44,859 nucleotides of DNA. It comes from a virus. The stretch is from the IMG/VR virus record IMGVR_UViG_3300032084_002426, positions 1-44,859 of that record; one strand, written 5' to 3'. The position numbers and the translations under genes are program-made. Below are positions 3,904 through 34,930 of the stretch, piece by piece. Position 1 is the first letter of the stretch, and every line of letters begins with the position of its first letter. The notes under the pieces were generated by a model that was not told the DNA's origin, searched no databases, and saw only the letters and a list, made by a program, of their open reading frames with translations.

Positions 3904-4378
3904 AAGAAAAGGATGGGATGAATTTAGGAAGACCGGGTTGCTTTTGATAATCAACCAAATCCTCCATATCTTTGGATGGGCGATAGTTATGGATATGCAA
4001 GAGGGGGAAGTTGTATCCGCTTATCCTGCCAGGGTTAAATTCCGGGGGTTTGCTGGAAACTGCGTAGATGAAGCTTATTTACACATATCCCAATATATGA
4101 GTAACAACCATAATGAATTATTGAACGAAACCATCGAAGGGATTCCCCCGGAAGAGGAGCCAGCTGGAGCCTTTAAAGATGGTTGGAATCTTCTAACTTT
4201 GGAATCCGTCCCTCCTGATATATGCTCAGGGAAATATGAATTCCACGAGGGAGACCTTTCAGTCAACCTTTTTGGTAAGACTTGTCAGGATTCTCCTCCT
4301 GAAATACTTTGTTGGCTCTATGAAGCGGCAAGGGGAAATAAACCTTGCCATCAGTTTTATTATAGAAAAAAGGGGTGA
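3896..4378 (+). CDS. conserved phage hypothetical protein, 160 aa
   Basis: The start at ATG 3896 follows AGGAGG closely and overlaps the preceding gene. The open frame extends upstream, but only as a shadow of that gene. The N-terminus runs MIERKGWDEFRKTG, then a hydrophobic stretch with ILHIFGWAIV, then YPARVKFRGF. I recognise this from many phages as an uncharacterised protein with a short hydrophobic N-terminal part and the PARVKFRGF motif. A monotopic or peripheral membrane association is possible. The C-terminal part has several cysteines (residues near 111, 127, 136 and 148) without a clear zinc motif. Confidence 0.7.
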   Translation: MIERKGWDEFRKTGLLLIINQILHIFGWAIVMDMQEGEVVSAYPARVKFRGFAGNCVDEAYLHISQYMSNNHNELLNETIEGIPPEEEPAGAFKDGWNLLTLESVPPDICSGKYEFHEGDLSVNLFGKTCQDSPPEILCWLYEAARGNKPCHQFYYRKKG

Positions 4379-4796: not shown

Positions 4797-4977
4797 GATC
4801 TTACGTAATACATTTATTTTTATACTGTCGGTATTATTTGGGATGCACATCGGAGTGAAGGCAATCATAGTGGCAATGCATGAATCTGCTAAATCCGGGG
4901 ATTATCTTGAACTTGATGATTCCTGTTTCATCATAGAAGAAGTGGACGTAGACGCTTTGACAAGGGAGCCGTTATGA
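4789..4977 (+). CDS. small membrane protein, 62 aa
   Basis: The frame is open from 4603, but the credible start is ATG 4789 (MPRILRNTF), just behind GCGGAGG and overlapping the end of the zinc-ribbon gene. Residues 5-32 form a hydrophobic segment suggesting an N-terminal membrane anchor. An acidic tail follows. The stop TGA overlaps the next ATG. Function unknown. Confidence 0.5.
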   Translation: MPRILRNTFIFILSVLFGMHIGVKAIIVAMHESAKSGDYLELDDSCFIIEEVDVDALTREPL

Positions 4978-5372
4978 CCAAACAGATTATAGAAAAATTT
5001 TTAGATAAGGCTGGCGTTACGCCTGGACCGTGGTTCACGCGAGACTTCTCCCCTACCCCTAAATGGCCTGATGATGAACGTCAAGAAATAGGTTTCGGAA
5101 ACGACGGCGAGTTGATTTCTGAATGTGTTCCGGTAAAGGCTGACGCTCACGTATTAGCCGCTTCCCGTGAAATGCTGGTGACTTTGATTGATATAACGTA
5201 TTCGCAGAATATGTATTATAGCCACATGTTTTTAGAATCAATCTCAAACAAATTTTTTAAAAAAGAGCATGCTAATCAAATTGAGGTTATCGAATCAGCC
5301 CTACCCGGCTACACCTGGGAAGGGATCAAAGAAGAATTAGAGAGGATGAAGGATGAAGAGACTACGGTTTAA
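4974..5372 (+). CDS. TPGPW-type phage hypothetical protein
   Basis: A 132-residue member of the same accessory family as 3130-3516. It has VTPGPWF near residue 15 and a KADAHVLAASREMLVTL segment in the middle, equivalent to the 'ADA.L.AAAPELLEAL' core. The two copies are diverged, so this is either an old duplication or two separate acquisitions. The start overlaps the stop of the previous gene by 4 nt. Function unknown. Confidence 0.65.
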   Translation: MTKQIIEKFLDKAGVTPGPWFTRDFSPTPKWPDDERQEIGFGNDGELISECVPVKADAHVLAASREMLVTLIDITYSQNMYYSHMFLESISNKFFKKEHANQIEVIESALPGYTWEGIKEELERMKDEETTV

Positions 5373-5598
5373 AGTCGAATGGGAAGCAAAAAATCCGGAT
5401 ACAGGGGAGATCATATCAGGTACAGAGTCGGAGGGCTCATGGTTCCTTCTTGATCAAAGGGGGGAATTCTTCTCCTATGGTCCTCTTCGCCCTATATCAA
5501 AGTGTGGTGATAAGTATATTTCCCTAATTCCTAAGATAAAGGTCGGTGACGAATACTTGTCAATTGAAGAGATAGAAGCACTTATCAAGGAGCGATAA
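5353..5598 (+). CDS. hypothetical protein, 81 aa
   Basis: A small protein that I do not recognise. Its start lies 20 nt inside the previous gene, behind GAGAGGATGAAGG. It has alternating charged and aromatic residues typical of a small beta-rich domain (RFKVEWEAKNPDTGE, GSWFLLDQRGEFFSYG) and no membrane segment. The next gene follows after 3 nt. Confidence 0.55.
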   Translation: MKRLRFKVEWEAKNPDTGEIISGTESEGSWFLLDQRGEFFSYGPLRPISKCGDKYISLIPKIKVGDEYLSIEEIEALIKER

Positions 5599-5601
5599 AA
5601 A

Positions 5602-6156
5602 ATGGAAGATAAAACATACCCAGAAACGTACACTATGGGATTTGGTAATAAGGAAATTTATGCAGTTGATAAGATTACAGGTAATCCTTGTACACGAGAT
5701 AGCTGTGAGTTTCATGATGGTAAGATGATGCAAAATTGCTCTTATTTTAATCCTGAAGGGTGTAAGTATGCTAAACTTGTTCCCCTATCCGTCACCTTTG
5801 AATTGACGAAGGAATGCCCGGAGTGCCAAGGGAAAGGTGATCATTATGTGTTTGACGATGGGGTTCATCACCCCTGCCCACACTGCTCAAATAATGGCCT
5901 CCCTAAAGGGAAGGTTCCGCGATACTGGACACCAGACGAAGCAGCAAAGGAAATTAAGGCGATGACAGGGACTGATTGGGAGTGGCCGGATGATACTCTA
6001 ATTAGGCACCTATTGAAAAATTCCAGAGCGTGGCATTCCTCCCTTCTGAGAAATATTCATGACTGGGTGCCAAAAGTCCTTGCCTTTCCCGGTCAACCCG
6101 CTCCCCCTGATAATTGGAGGCCGGGAGGGGACATAAAGGAATTAACCAATGGATAA
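5602..6156 (+). CDS. cysteine-rich zinc-finger hypothetical protein
   Basis: A 184-residue protein with two cysteine groups. The first, residues 29-54, has four spaced cysteines (C, C, C, C with DSCEFHD and EGCKYAK). The second, CPECQGKG followed by PCPHCSNNG, resembles one zinc module of the DnaJ cysteine-rich domain. The C-terminal part is rich in Trp and Pro (WTPDEAAKEI, DWEWPDD). The start has a good spacing to AAGGAG. The function is unknown; nucleic-acid or chaperone contact is only a guess. Confidence 0.6.
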   Translation: MEDKTYPETYTMGFGNKEIYAVDKITGNPCTRDSCEFHDGKMMQNCSYFNPEGCKYAKLVPLSVTFELTKECPECQGKGDHYVFDDGVHHPCPHCSNNGLPKGKVPRYWTPDEAAKEIKAMTGTDWEWPDDTLIRHLLKNSRAWHSSLLRNIHDWVPKVLAFPGQPAPPDNWRPGGDIKELTNG

Positions 6157-10729: not shown

Positions 10730-11658
10730 TGTCCAATTATATCTTATATGCTGTCGGTCTTCTTGGAATGGTTATCAATGGACAGTATTTTTTCTTCTAT
10801 TTCCAAGAGGCAGGATATCAGGCTGTTTTGTCTCCTTCCATGGCTTTTACCTTTATAGTTTTTGAATCCCTCCTTTGGCTTCGATCCTCTAGATATAAAT
10901 GGCTTAAAGTGTCTATGTTGTGCTTTTCCGTTCTTGTTACTATGTCGGCCCAGTACAGCAGCACGTCTAAAGTCGAGGTTAACTCGGCCAATTCAATCAA
11001 CCAAGCCTATGGGTATGAATCTAATATCGATAGATATAAAGATGAGATAAAGAATGCTACCGACGAGATAAACCGGATAAACACTATGCGTCAGGAAAAT
11101 TTCCTATTTTCTCGTACAGACAATGACCTTGAATACTACAGGGCAGAAAAAGCTCGATATGAACAGTTATTAAAAAAAGAGCGGGATAGTTATATCAAGT
11201 CTATTCCTGCAAAAAAAACGATCTATGACTGGTTTGCGTATGACTTCCCTCGGATAATTAAAGACGGGGTTACTCCTGAACTTATTAGAGTTCTCTTTCA
11301 AGTATTTAGCTCTTTCGTGCTTGCGTTAGTGGCTCCGGTTTGCTTCTCTCTTATTGAGAAGAAAGAACCTCCCACAGAAACAAAGAGGCTTAAGCCTACG
11401 GCGGTTGATTATTCTGGTTACGTCTTAAGATGGGTTAATTATCATTGGGTTAATATTAGGACTGGGAAATCTGACCAAATCGTAAGCCGTAAGATTTTCT
11501 ATGAAGCTATGGCCGCTCGTAACATTGATTTCCCGGAAAAAGCGTACGATTCTATACTTTTTGCGGCAAATACTAGCAAAGTTGTTGACAAGTCTCAAAT
11601 ATTGTGTAGAATAGAGTCAGAAGCTGTAGAGAAGATCAAAGCTTCATTGAAATCTTAG
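10729..11658 (+). CDS. membrane protein with coiled coil, 309 aa
   Basis: Not a family I recognise. The N-terminus has about three hydrophobic segments (YILYAVGLLGMVINGQYFFF; VLSPSMAFTFIVFESLLWL; VSMLCFSVLVTM). A long polar helical region follows (about 90-150, with DEINRINTMRQ and EYYRAEKARYEQLLKKE), then another membrane segment near 190-215 (SSFVLALVAPVCFSLI) and a soluble C-terminal domain of about 90 residues. The topology is that of a membrane-anchored sensor or scaffold. It is the last protein gene before the non-coding RNA region, and a promoter for that region lies inside its 3' end. Confidence 0.6.
   Translation: MSNYILYAVGLLGMVINGQYFFFYFQEAGYQAVLSPSMAFTFIVFESLLWLRSSRYKWLKVSMLCFSVLVTMSAQYSSTSKVEVNSANSINQAYGYESNIDRYKDEIKNATDEINRINTMRQENFLFSRTDNDLEYYRAEKARYEQLLKKERDSYIKSIPAKKTIYDWFAYDFPRIIKDGVTPELIRVLFQVFSSFVLALVAPVCFSLIEKKEPPTETKRLKPTAVDYSGYVLRWVNYHWVNIRTGKSDQIVSRKIFYEAMAARNIDFPEKAYDSILFAANTSKVVDKSQILCRIESEAVEKIKASLKS
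11585..11612 (+). promoter_or_regulatory. strong candidate promoter reading into the RNA region
   Basis: TTGACA (11585-11590), a 16-nt spacer and TAGAAT (11607-11612). It lies within the last 75 bases of the membrane protein gene and would start transcription near 11619, about 40 nt before that gene ends. Nothing but non-coding sequence follows for 1.2 kb, so its likely job is to drive the structured RNA and tRNA-Pro. Confidence 0.55.
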
Positions 11659-11762
11659 CCTAGAGTCGGGCGAAATCAGAAAGGCTCAAAGGATTGATGT
11701 TAAAACCCCGGACTGCCGCCAGCGGGTTATCTGGCAGCCCCACCGATAGGGTTATTATGGAA

Positions 11763-11870
11763 TTATCTGTGCCAGAGTGGGCCATAATGGTGACGCAGAT
11801 AAACCCCGAACGTGCTGGAGTCTGCATTCCAATAGACGAGGGGCCGCAGGTTCGAATCCTGTCAGATAAT
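11763..11870 (+). tRNA. tRNA-Ser(GGA)-like element with a 16-nt insertion in the anticodon loop
   Basis: The ends form a perfect 7-bp acceptor stem (TTATCTG with CAGATAA, discriminator T). The T arm GCAGG TTCGAAT CCTGT has a consensus T loop. A D-arm-like stretch GCCAGAGTGG fits class II tRNAs. GCAG (11795-11798) pairs with CTGC (11822-11825), and CTGGAGT (11815-11821) would be an anticodon loop reading GGA. Sixteen extra bases (11799-11814) separate the loop from its 5' strand. Without them the element is 92 nt, normal for a serine tRNA with a long variable arm. It is either a tRNA interrupted by a tiny intron-like insertion, a dead tRNA, or a tRNA-like module of a larger RNA. Confidence 0.35.
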
Positions 11871-12234
11871 TGAGGGAACTTATTGGTGGGACTTCAACCC
11901 TCACAACATGCAATGAACCATCGAGCTGTGATGCAGGGGCTCTAACACTGCATCTATCCAACTGAGGCCGTCATGGGTATGGGCGGGAATCCTGCAATAG
12001 CGGGATGCATAGATATGTGCCACCGGGTCAACGCCGGACAGTTGGTGACTAGGCTTAAAAACATCAGCTATACTGGTTCCGGGGGGTTCAACCGGACAGG
12101 AAAGCGGCTGACTGAGCGGTAGACAGGTATTTTCGGGTTCCTACCCCGATCAAATCACCGCAAAACTTAGGTCGCAATTTCGACGCGAAGTGAGAATACC
12201 GAAGGCCCCGCCGGGGAAACAGGCGAGGCAACAA

Positions 12235-12381
12235 AAGAAGGTAGCGTAAAGGTGAGCGCACTTCCATAATAGCGATATGGGAACCGGTTATATGTCGCCC
12301 CTGCTGCATTGAGATGTTGTCTGCAGATGTAGATGGGGGGGGGGGAGATAGCACGTGGAGGTTCGAATCCTCCCCTTCTTA
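12235..12381 (+). other. 147-nt tRNA-like element with a long internal insertion
   Basis: A perfect acceptor stem (AAGAAGG with CCTTCTT, then A), TA at positions 8-9, a D arm GCGT AAAGGTGA GCGC and a T arm GGAGG TTCGAAT CCTCC are all in the right order at the two ends. Between them lie about 70 bases too many, including a run of 11 G (12336-12346). Possible anticodon stems are CCATA/TATGG with a 7-nt loop, or CTTCC with a distant GGGAG. No usable anticodon can be chosen with confidence. Confidence 0.3.
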
Positions 12382-12459
12382 TACTCTCTTTTTTTGAGAG
12401 GACCAATTAACCAGCCATATGAGACTTTGGGCGGGCGTTTTACGGGGATCATTCCCCCG

Positions 12460-12538
12460 GATTGGTTAGAGCGTGGGTTCAATTCCCACTCGTTGATCGA
12501 GATTGGTATGGAATACGGGTTCGACTCCCGTCTTTGAT
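12460..12538 (+). repeat. two tandem 38-nt T-arm-like hairpin units
   Basis: Units 12460-12497 and 12501-12538 both begin GATTGGT and end TTGAT. Each contains a 5-bp stem with a T-loop-like heptamer: GTGGG TTCAATT CCCAC and ACGGG TTCGACT CCCGT. The stem bases differ in two positions, and both changes are matched on the other strand, so pairing is kept. Neither unit has a full tRNA around it; the first is preceded by a D-arm-like GGTTAGAGC with no anticodon arm between. Confidence 0.45.
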
Positions 12539-12652
12539 GTAGGTATTAAGGGATCTACCGTCCACGGGGAATCAGTGAAGATGCTCGGAGAAAGGGTAGA
12601 GCATTGCTAAAGTCTTAATTGACAACCCCTAGTGGGTGAGATGCCCACATTT

Positions 12653-12724
12653 CAGAATGTAGGATAACGGCTATCCGCTTGCTTTGGGAGCAAGATTAAG
12701 CGAGTTCGACTCTCGCCATTCTGA
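12653..12724 (+). tRNA. tRNA-Pro(TGG)
   Basis: A complete cloverleaf of 72 nt. The acceptor is CAGAATG/CATTCTG with discriminator A, the D arm GGAT AACGGCT ATCC, the anticodon arm CTTGC TTTGGGA GCAAG with anticodon TGG, the variable loop ATTAA, and the T arm GCGAG TTCGACT CTCGC. CCA is not encoded. It would read CCA and other CCN proline codons. It lies at the 3' end of the RNA region, just before a terminator. Confidence 0.93.
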
Positions 12725-12727
12725 CAT

Positions 12728-12764
12728 ATCGGGCCGGAGGTTTTAGTCCTCCTTGCTCGATTTT
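12728..12764 (+). terminator. intrinsic terminator after tRNA-Pro
   Basis: ATCGGGC (12728-12734) pairs with GCTCGAT (12755-12761), and GGAGG pairs with CCTCC inside it around a TTTTAGT loop. TTT follows. It starts 3 nt after the tRNA and can end the RNA transcript. The inner arm also looks like a tRNA T arm, so it could be part of the structured RNA. Confidence 0.5.
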
Positions 12765-12858: not shown

Positions 12859-13032
12859 ATGGAAGAGAAAAACGAACAGACAAGAATCCGGATTGCCTAT
12901 AAGGTGAGTGCGAAAGGGCAATTCCAGCCCGATGTGACAGCGGAGGCGGAGACCGTGGAGACTGCTGAGAAGCTTTTAAACGACGGGCTTGAAGCTGCTA
13001 AGCGGCTCGCGGAAAAAGAGGGAACACTTTAG
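12859..13032 (+). CDS. small hypothetical protein, 57 aa
   Basis: ATG 12859 follows AAAGGAGC at good spacing, which supports it as a gene. The product (MEEKNEQTRIRIAYKVSAKG...) is charged, with a helical C-terminal half rich in Ala, Glu and Lys. I do not recognise it. It precedes the recombination gene at 13077 and is separated from it by an attenuator-like hairpin. Confidence 0.55.
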   Translation: MEEKNEQTRIRIAYKVSAKGQFQPDVTAEAETVETAEKLLNDGLEAAKRLAEKEGTL

Positions 13033-34701: not shown

Positions 34702-34845
34702 ATGGTAAAAGTAATAGGTGTTATTTTAATCGTCGGGGTGTTTTTTCTTAGCGGCTGCAAGAAGGAGCAAGAAGAACCGGTTCATGTGGAAAGAGCCTTA
34801 AAGTATTCCGAATTTGACGATGCTGGCGGGTTCTACGGGATTTAA
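34702..34845 (+). CDS. island gene 8: small phage lipoprotein, 47 aa
   Basis: ATG 34702 behind AAGGAG. A hydrophobic signal (VIGVILIVGVFFLSG) ends in a lipobox LSGC, with Cys 19 the lipidated residue. The mature part is about 29 residues and charged (KKEQEEPVHVERALKYSEFD). Such tiny phage lipoproteins can block infection by related phages by binding a receptor (for example T5 Llp), so superinfection exclusion is a reasonable guess. Its stop codon lies in a long inverted repeat. Confidence 0.75.
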   Translation: MVKVIGVILIVGVFFLSGCKKEQEEPVHVERALKYSEFDDAGGFYGI

Positions 34846-34884
34846 GCTTTTGGCCCCGGGTTATATCGGGGCCAAAAGCTTAAA
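34841..34884. repeat. 18-bp perfect inverted repeat at the end of the lipoprotein gene
   Basis: TTTAAGCTTTTGGCCCCG (34841-34858) is exactly repeated in reverse complement at 34867-34884 around GGTTATAT. It includes the stop codon of the lipoprotein gene. No T run follows on either strand outside the stem, although T-rich stem bases could serve. It may be a terminator of unusual form, an mRNA-stabilising hairpin, or a protein site. Confidence 0.7.
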
Positions 34885-34930
34885 GTCATGGATAGCCGGA
34901 AGCCATATATTTTAAAGGAGGCGATATTAC

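What the first reader, a model, noticed from the sequence alone, without database searches (positions are those of the whole stretch)
11585..12764. 1.1-kb structured non-coding RNA region with its own promoter and terminator
A consensus-like promoter inside the preceding gene, a long stretch without genes, many hairpins, T-arm-like modules and a tRNA-Pro plus terminator at the end suggest one large transcript. Phages carry giant RNAs (GOLLD, ROOL) beside tRNAs. This could be one of them or a new class.
Basis: partly seen in the sequence, partly recalled or inferred. Interest (0 to 1): 0.8.

Follow-up and report, generated by a model that had tools for sequence, protein, structure and literature searches.

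The report
Phage array of broken tRNA-like genes
A gene-free kilobase in a bacterial virus is not one giant RNA but a small cluster of tRNA-derived elements, one normal tRNA and at least four odd ones that kept the tRNA's T arm while losing or replacing its codon-reading part, a pattern that also appears, largely unannotated, in other phages and in a known T4 RNA of unknown function.

Summary
The region is real and gene-free, and its T-arm modules are far beyond chance. Five strict tRNA T arms (5-bp stem, TTYRANY loop) lie within 0.9 kb of a 44.9-kb phage record that has only two elsewhere. All four of the record's tRNA-consensus T arms (GG-TTCRANY-CC) are here, against 0 in 30 shuffles. It is not GOLLD, ROOL or any Rfam giant RNA. 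Without its last 125 bases it folds no better than shuffled sequence (z -0.07), and three relatives checked lack it at the syntenic place.

Best reading: a lineage-specific tRNA array with one canonical tRNA-Pro(UGG) and at least four cryptic tRNA-like elements. Two (107 and 146 nt) keep perfect acceptor and T stems around an enlarged interior. Two tandem T arms have no normal anticodon arm. A minihelix closes the array. They cannot decode normally.

Related phages carry more such T arms (6 versus about 0.25 expected), mostly outside recognised tRNAs. T4 species 1 RNA (rnaC), stable and of unknown function, shares the design: its 3' end matches a tRNA-Asn 3' end and its stem shows compensatory changes. 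Whether the window's elements are functional non-decoding RNAs or relics of tRNA recombination is unresolved.

The parts
11585..11612 (+). promoter-like site TTGACA-16-TAGAAT, inside the 3' end of the preceding ORF
   Evidence: 11 of 12 consensus matches; function inferred
11763..11869 (+). tRNA-like element A (107 nt): acceptor TTATCTG/CAGATAA (7/7 Watson-Crick, extends to 9 bp at 11761-11871), TG at 8-9, D-like arm CCA...TGG, T arm 11846-11862; 5-bp stem GCAGA/TCTGC with a 21-nt loop in place of a normal anticodon arm
   Evidence: chance of a 7-bp acceptor partner followed by T[AG] within 200 nt is 0.00075; not called by ARAGORN or Rfam
12235..12381 (+). tRNA-like element C: acceptor AAGAAGG/CCTTCTT, TA, D arm GCGT-AAAGGTGA-GCGC, 7-bp arm with loop ATAGCGA (12269-12275), then about 74 nt including an 11-G run before T arm 12357-12373
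   Evidence: Rfam tRNA 40.5 bits; unconstrained MFE gives the cloverleaf; ARAGORN calls it only if an intron is allowed; chance of the acceptor partner 0.00465
12460..12500 (+). element D: GATTGGTTAGAGC (D-loop-like) directly followed by T arm GTGGG-TTCAATT-CCCAC (12473-12489) and TCGTTGATC; no acceptor partner found, no anticodon arm between
   Evidence: sequence
12491..12537 (+). element E: CTCG-TTGAT-CGAG hairpin, ATTGGTATGGAAT, T arm ACGGG-TTCGACT-CCCGT (12515-12531), CTTTGAT; no acceptor partner found
   Evidence: sequence
12653..12725 (+). canonical tRNA-Pro(UGG), no encoded CCA
   Evidence: ARAGORN, Rfam 56.5 bits, 85% identical over 63 nt to a genome of the spirochaete-MAG phylum
12728..12761 (+). 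element G: minihelix ATCGGGC/GCTCGAT + GGAGG-TTTTAGT-CCTCC (acceptor-plus-T-arm shape with degenerate T loop); may act as a weak terminator (TTTTA follows)
   Evidence: z -3.7; loose T-arm scan

Best explanation
The 1.1 kb is a tRNA-gene array in which most members are no longer ordinary tRNAs. Shown: five T arms, two of them closing perfect acceptor stems (elements A and C), one canonical tRNA-Pro, two tandem T arms with no anticodon arm of normal form before them (D, E) and a terminal minihelix (G), all on the + strand and gene-free. Inferred: one precursor transcript from the promoter at 11585 is cut at the acceptor/T-arm units by the host's tRNA maturation enzymes (RNase P at 5' ends, RNase Z or exonucleases at 3' ends, CCA-adding enzyme), since these enzymes mainly read the acceptor-T helix. 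That would release tRNA-Pro plus several stable tRNA-like RNAs that cannot decode because their anticodon arm is absent or enlarged. They most likely arose by recombination, deletion or insertion among tRNA genes that spared the 3' T-arm/acceptor end, as T4 species 1 RNA shows. They are either kept as non-decoding tRNA mimics (T4 rnaC-like) or are not yet lost. I judge the array reading about 0.8 likely; that the odd members have a function, about 0.4.
For: T-arm density; acceptor stems of A and C; C scores as tRNA in Rfam and folds as a cloverleaf unconstrained; T-arm stretches match phage tRNA genes; region lies next to a good tRNA-Pro; relatives sharing TerL, TMP and SbcC genes carry further consensus T arms, 6 observed versus 0-1 (mean 0.25) in shuffles, mostly outside recognised tRNAs; T4 rnaC has the same design, its 3' 27 nt are identical to the 3' end of tRNA-Asn in phage AV115, and the rnaC stem shows compensatory change CCGGG/CCCGG to CCTGG/CCAGG.
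Against: No homologue of this array was found, so conservation cannot be tested. D and E have no acceptor partner. Interiors of A, D and E match no tRNA. In relatives, T arms with an acceptor of at least 6 Watson-Crick pairs are only 3 versus about 1 in shuffles. No expression data.
Confidence: 0.75

Rival explanations
1. Graveyard: a former tRNA array decaying by deletion and insertion; the odd elements are relics with no product of use.
For: Only one canonical tRNA remains; D and E lack acceptor partners; array absent from relatives, so it is recent and dispensable; folding of the first 980 nt is at chance; G11 run inside C.
Against: Acceptor and T stems of A and C are perfect while their interiors are unrecognisable, which point-mutation decay would not give; similar elements recur in related phages; T4 rnaC shows that such a product can be stable and conserved in hundreds of records.
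Confidence: 0.45
2. A single new giant ornate phage RNA that uses T-loop modules, distinct from GOLLD and ROOL.
For: Tandem T arms D/E resemble a tandem pair in Touem01 (local score 47 versus 25-37 for six other phage tRNA regions), including CTCGTTRRYCGAG between the arms; a 20-nt 80% complementary long-range pair 11743-11762/12262-12281.
Against: Folding at chance; no similarity to Touem01 once T arms are masked (26, 60 and 39 of 200 shuffles do as well); no Rfam match; absent at the syntenic place in relatives; Touem01's T arm at 3999 closes its own acceptor-like stem, so it too is tRNA-like.
Confidence: 0.08
3. Intron-bearing or circularly permuted tRNA genes.
For: ARAGORN fits C as tRNA-Tyr(gta) with a 60-nt intron at 33-34; A has a 21-nt and the G007 element a 19-nt anticodon-stem loop; relative G009 has a tRNA-Tyr 3' part followed by a tRNA 5' half sharing AAGCACAAGA.
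Against: The intron position is not canonical, no bulge-helix-bulge or group I core was seen, and no U33 stands where the loops of A and G007 would need it; the hosts appear bacterial; no acceptor partner with the right spacing was found downstream of D or E.
Confidence: 0.06
4. tRNA 3' fragments left as phage attachment sites or by integrating elements.
For: Orphan tRNA 3' ends beside an integrase are seen elsewhere, e.g. phage Dewey, and in prokaryote genomes (PMC9897764).
Against: No tyrosine integrase in the window or in 15 related records; several different 3' ends in one array; A and C have both acceptor strands.
Confidence: 0.02

Closest known systems
T4 species 1 RNA (rnaC), 139 nt, in the T4 tRNA cluster
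   Same: Lies in a phage tRNA cluster; canonical T arm CCGGG-TTCGAAT-CCCGG near the 3' end; no normal D or anticodon arm; length close to element C (146 nt); role unknown (PMC3014915, PMC9697503)
   Different: No sequence homology beyond the T arm (best local score 26); A and C have full 7-bp acceptor stems, C also a D arm; the window has several such elements
Canonical phage tRNA arrays (e.g. CcrBL9, KB57, Sushi23)
   Same: Clustered T-arm-bearing units on one strand between early genes, with a canonical tRNA-Pro
   Different: In T4, CcrBL9 and CherryTomatoes all strict T arms fall inside ARAGORN models; in the window 3 of 5 do not, and a fourth does only with an intron allowed
B. cereus tRNA-Other (pseudo-tRNA)
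   Same: tRNA-derived, non-decoding element suggested to sit within a larger regulatory RNA (PMC3399842)
   Different: Chromosomal and single; the window has a phage array and no functional data
GOLLD and ROOL giant phage RNAs
   Same: Non-coding, in phages, near tRNAs (PMC12286853)
   Different: No Rfam match; no ornate folding signal; T arms belong to tRNA-like units

Membership tests
GOLLD (Rfam) | match to the covariance model, conserved 3' domain | tested here: not met
   no hit at gathering score or E<=10
ROOL (Rfam) | match to the covariance model | tested here: not met
   no hit at gathering score or E<=10
Giant ornate RNA (any) | folding more stable than shuffled sequence, covariation in homologues | tested here: not met
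   z -0.07 for 11660-12640; covariation could not be tested, no homologue found
Canonical tRNA | cloverleaf with 7-nt anticodon loop at normal spacing | tested here: not met
   met only by 12653-12725; A, C, D, E and G fail
tRNA-derived element | canonical T arm, plus acceptor stem | tested here: met
   T arms of A, C, D, E; acceptor 7/7 for A and C; not found for D and E
T4 rnaC family | sequence homology to species 1 RNA | tested here: not met
   window shares only the T arm with the T4 cluster, score 26; the claim is 'built like', not 'member of'
T4 rnaC family | stable processed RNA in infected cells | not testable with these tools
   needs RNA from infected cells
Phage attachment site | integrase gene nearby | tested here: not met
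   PF00589 absent from 16 records including the window; serine recombinases were not tested

The most novel reading that the evidence does not exclude
Phages widely encode a class of anticodon-less or anticodon-expanded tRNA mimics, of which T4 species 1 RNA is the only annotated member noticed here; they are missed by tRNA finders, keep the acceptor/T-arm end under selection, and act as non-decoding decoys or scaffolds for tRNA-binding enzymes or tRNA-cleaving defences.
Probability: 0.2. Interest if true: 0.75.

Novelty: new variant of a known kind. Interest (0 to 1): 0.48.

Why it matters
Phage tRNA counts come from programs that demand a normal cloverleaf. This window and several other phages show T-arm-bearing units that those programs miss. 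If such units are expressed and processed, phages make a second layer of tRNA-like RNAs that cannot translate, which would give the half-century-old question of what T4 species 1 RNA does a comparative handle. It also warns against reading T-arm-rich gene-free stretches as new giant RNAs.

Tried and rejected
Rfam at relaxed threshold for giant RNAs: nothing. blastn of the whole region in 50,697 phage records: no match. Relatives by single proteins (primase, ORF13077, ORF10729): none; TerL and alignments worked. Whole-region homology with Touem01 looked colinear at first but failed a T-arm-masked shuffle test. Permuted-tRNA pairing of T arm E with the D-arm-like hairpin near 12583: 6/7 pairs in two different registers but no matching anticodon stem, so rejected. 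A loose T-arm test in relatives was at chance (11 versus 2-11 in shuffles); only the stricter consensus is significant, and I state both. Structure prediction was not useful here. blastn in 393 genomes of the phylum of the one TerL-bearing MAG (Treponema sp.) found tRNA fragments only, no array. Codon usage gives no obvious reason for tRNA-Pro(UGG): CCA is 25% of Pro codons.

Full report
What the window is. The window is a 44,859-base IMG/VR virus record. It encodes a tailed phage with primase, helicase, DNA methyltransferase, SbcC-like nuclease subunit, SSB, tape measure, portal and terminase genes. Named phages are distant: the best primase match is 27% identical and the best terminase match is about 31%. 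A terminase relative lies in a Treponema MAG contig, a weak hint at a spirochaete host.

Checking the observation. Between the ORF that ends at 11658 and the ORF that starts at 12859 there is no ORF over 60 aa on the + strand. A promoter-like site matching 11 of 12 positions stands at 11585-11612. ARAGORN finds one tRNA, Pro(TGG), at 12653-12725. The T-arm impression is correct and strong: strict T arms occur at 11846, 12357, 12473, 12515 and 12700, with only two more in the whole window on both strands, and shuffles of the region give a mean of 0.013. The tighter tRNA consensus (stem ending GG/CC, loop TTCRANY) occurs four times in the window, all here, and never in 30 shuffles. The impression of many hairpins is not borne out: 11660-12640 folds at z -0.07, and the whole region at z -1.9. 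The terminator claim is weak.

Anatomy. Element A (11763-11869) has a perfect 7-bp acceptor stem, 9 bp with its extension, the usual TG at positions 8-9 and a D-like arm. Where the anticodon arm should be, it has a 5-bp stem with a 21-nt loop. Element C (12235-12381) scores 40.5 bits as tRNA in Rfam and folds without constraint into acceptor, D arm, a 7-bp arm with loop AUAGCGA, a long hairpin and a T arm. About 74 nt stand between its second arm and its T arm, with an 11-G run. ARAGORN accepts C only with a 60-nt intron. The chance of a perfect acceptor partner followed by T[AG] is 0.00075 for A and 0.00465 for C. Elements D and E are tandem T arms 42 nt apart, preceded by D-loop-like or short hairpin sequence, without acceptor partners. 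The canonical tRNA-Pro follows. The array ends in a minihelix of acceptor-plus-T-arm shape with a degenerate T loop.

Relatives. Terminase and ORF13077 searches gave about 35 related records. The syntenic place was read in three. In G001 the membrane-protein ORF is followed by a short gene and then the ORF13077 homologue. G005 has the same order. In G006 a homologue of the small window ORF at 12859 follows directly. None has an array there, so the array is specific to the window's lineage. Elsewhere in these records six consensus T arms occur, against 0 or 1 (mean 0.25) in 20 shuffle sets. One is in a damaged tRNA-Tyr followed by an orphan tRNA 5' half (G009). One, beside a canonical tRNA-Thr, closes an acceptor stem around a D arm and a 19-nt-loop stem (G007). 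One closes an acceptor stem around a strong hairpin (G005). One closes a 6/7 acceptor stem (G011). Two stand almost alone between genes (G022, G026). A looser T-arm test in the same records is not significant (11 versus 2-11), so the claim rests on the tRNA consensus. No integrase was found in 16 records, which argues against attachment sites.

Baseline in named phages. In eight regions of annotated phages, 60 strict T arms fall inside ARAGORN models and 11 outside. The sample is biased, because most regions were chosen by T-arm similarity. T4, CcrBL9 and CherryTomatoes have none outside; Touem01 has three and no recognised tRNA at all, in a gene-free gap of about 0.95 kb. Several of the outside units close acceptor-like stems. 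The window's tandem D/E pair resembles one in Touem01, but the two regions share nothing significant once the T arms are masked, so I do not claim a shared RNA family.

The instructive precedent. In T4's tRNA cluster lies species 1 RNA (rnaC, 139 nt), a stable RNA of unknown role. It has a canonical T arm near its 3' end and no normal D or anticodon arm. It is found in 720 phage records. Its last 27 nt are identical to the 3' end of tRNA-Asn in phage AV115. Across diverged homologues its T stem changes on both sides, CCGGG/CCCGG to CCTGG/CCAGG to CTTGG/CCAAG, while the T loop is not always kept. So a phage RNA can take its 3' end from a tRNA, replace the rest, and be maintained.

Mechanism. 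Shown: tRNA-derived units with sound T arms, two with sound acceptor stems, no normal anticodon arm. Inferred: co-transcription from 11585, excision by tRNA maturation enzymes that read the acceptor-T helix, and release of tRNA-Pro and several non-decoding tRNA-like RNAs. Speculative: a role as mimics for tRNA-binding or tRNA-cleaving proteins. Phage tRNAs are known to counter tRNA-targeting defences (PMC10264068, PMC11555353), and a pseudo-tRNA has been given a regulatory role in B. cereus (PMC3399842). The rival that these are relics is about equally likely.

Verdict. The giant-RNA reading is not supported. The region is a tRNA array with mostly cryptic tRNA-like members: a new variant of a known kind, of moderate interest, rising if expression and selection can be shown.

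Noticed in passing
L019 about 4860-6130 (- strand; same as L014 11400-12700): Related phage G005 carries several copies of an intergenic element like ACAACAGCGATTGATACGCCATTAAAACGGCGTATAATCGCAGAACGTTGT, a nested inverted repeat, between small early genes; one copy follows its cryptic tRNA-like element.
   Followed up: no
L031 2230-2380: Related phage G009 has a tRNA-Tyr(GTA) with a damaged 5' acceptor, followed at once by an orphan tRNA 5' half (GGGGCGT TA GCTCAGTGGTTGAGC); both contain AAGCACAAGA, and the downstream 5' strand pairs 6/7 with the upstream 3' acceptor. Possible permuted or recombined tRNA.
   Followed up: partly
window 11743-11762 and 12262-12281: 20-nt arms, 80% complementary, 499 nt apart, joining the stretch before element A to the second arm of element C.
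   Followed up: no
window about 12336-12346: Run of 11 G inside element C; could be real or a sequencing or assembly slip.
   Followed up: no
window 34845-34885: Long inverted repeat TTAAGCTTTTGGCCCCGGGTTATATCGGGGCCAAAAGCTTAA in an intergenic space; terminator-like.
   Followed up: no
window about 11885-11970, - strand: A D-arm-like stretch CTCAGTTGGATAGA and an imperfect T-arm-like stretch on the opposite strand within the array.
   Followed up: partly
window about 12133-12149 and 12581-12605: Weaker T-arm-like hairpin (loop TTCCTAC) and a D-arm-like hairpin GCTC...GGGTA-GAGC, possible further tRNA fragments, not counted as parts.
   Followed up: partly
L101 3245-4190 (Pseudomonas phage Touem01): Gene-free gap of about 0.95 kb with three consensus T arms and no ARAGORN tRNA, unannotated; the same phage has a distant homologue of the window's primase.
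   Followed up: partly
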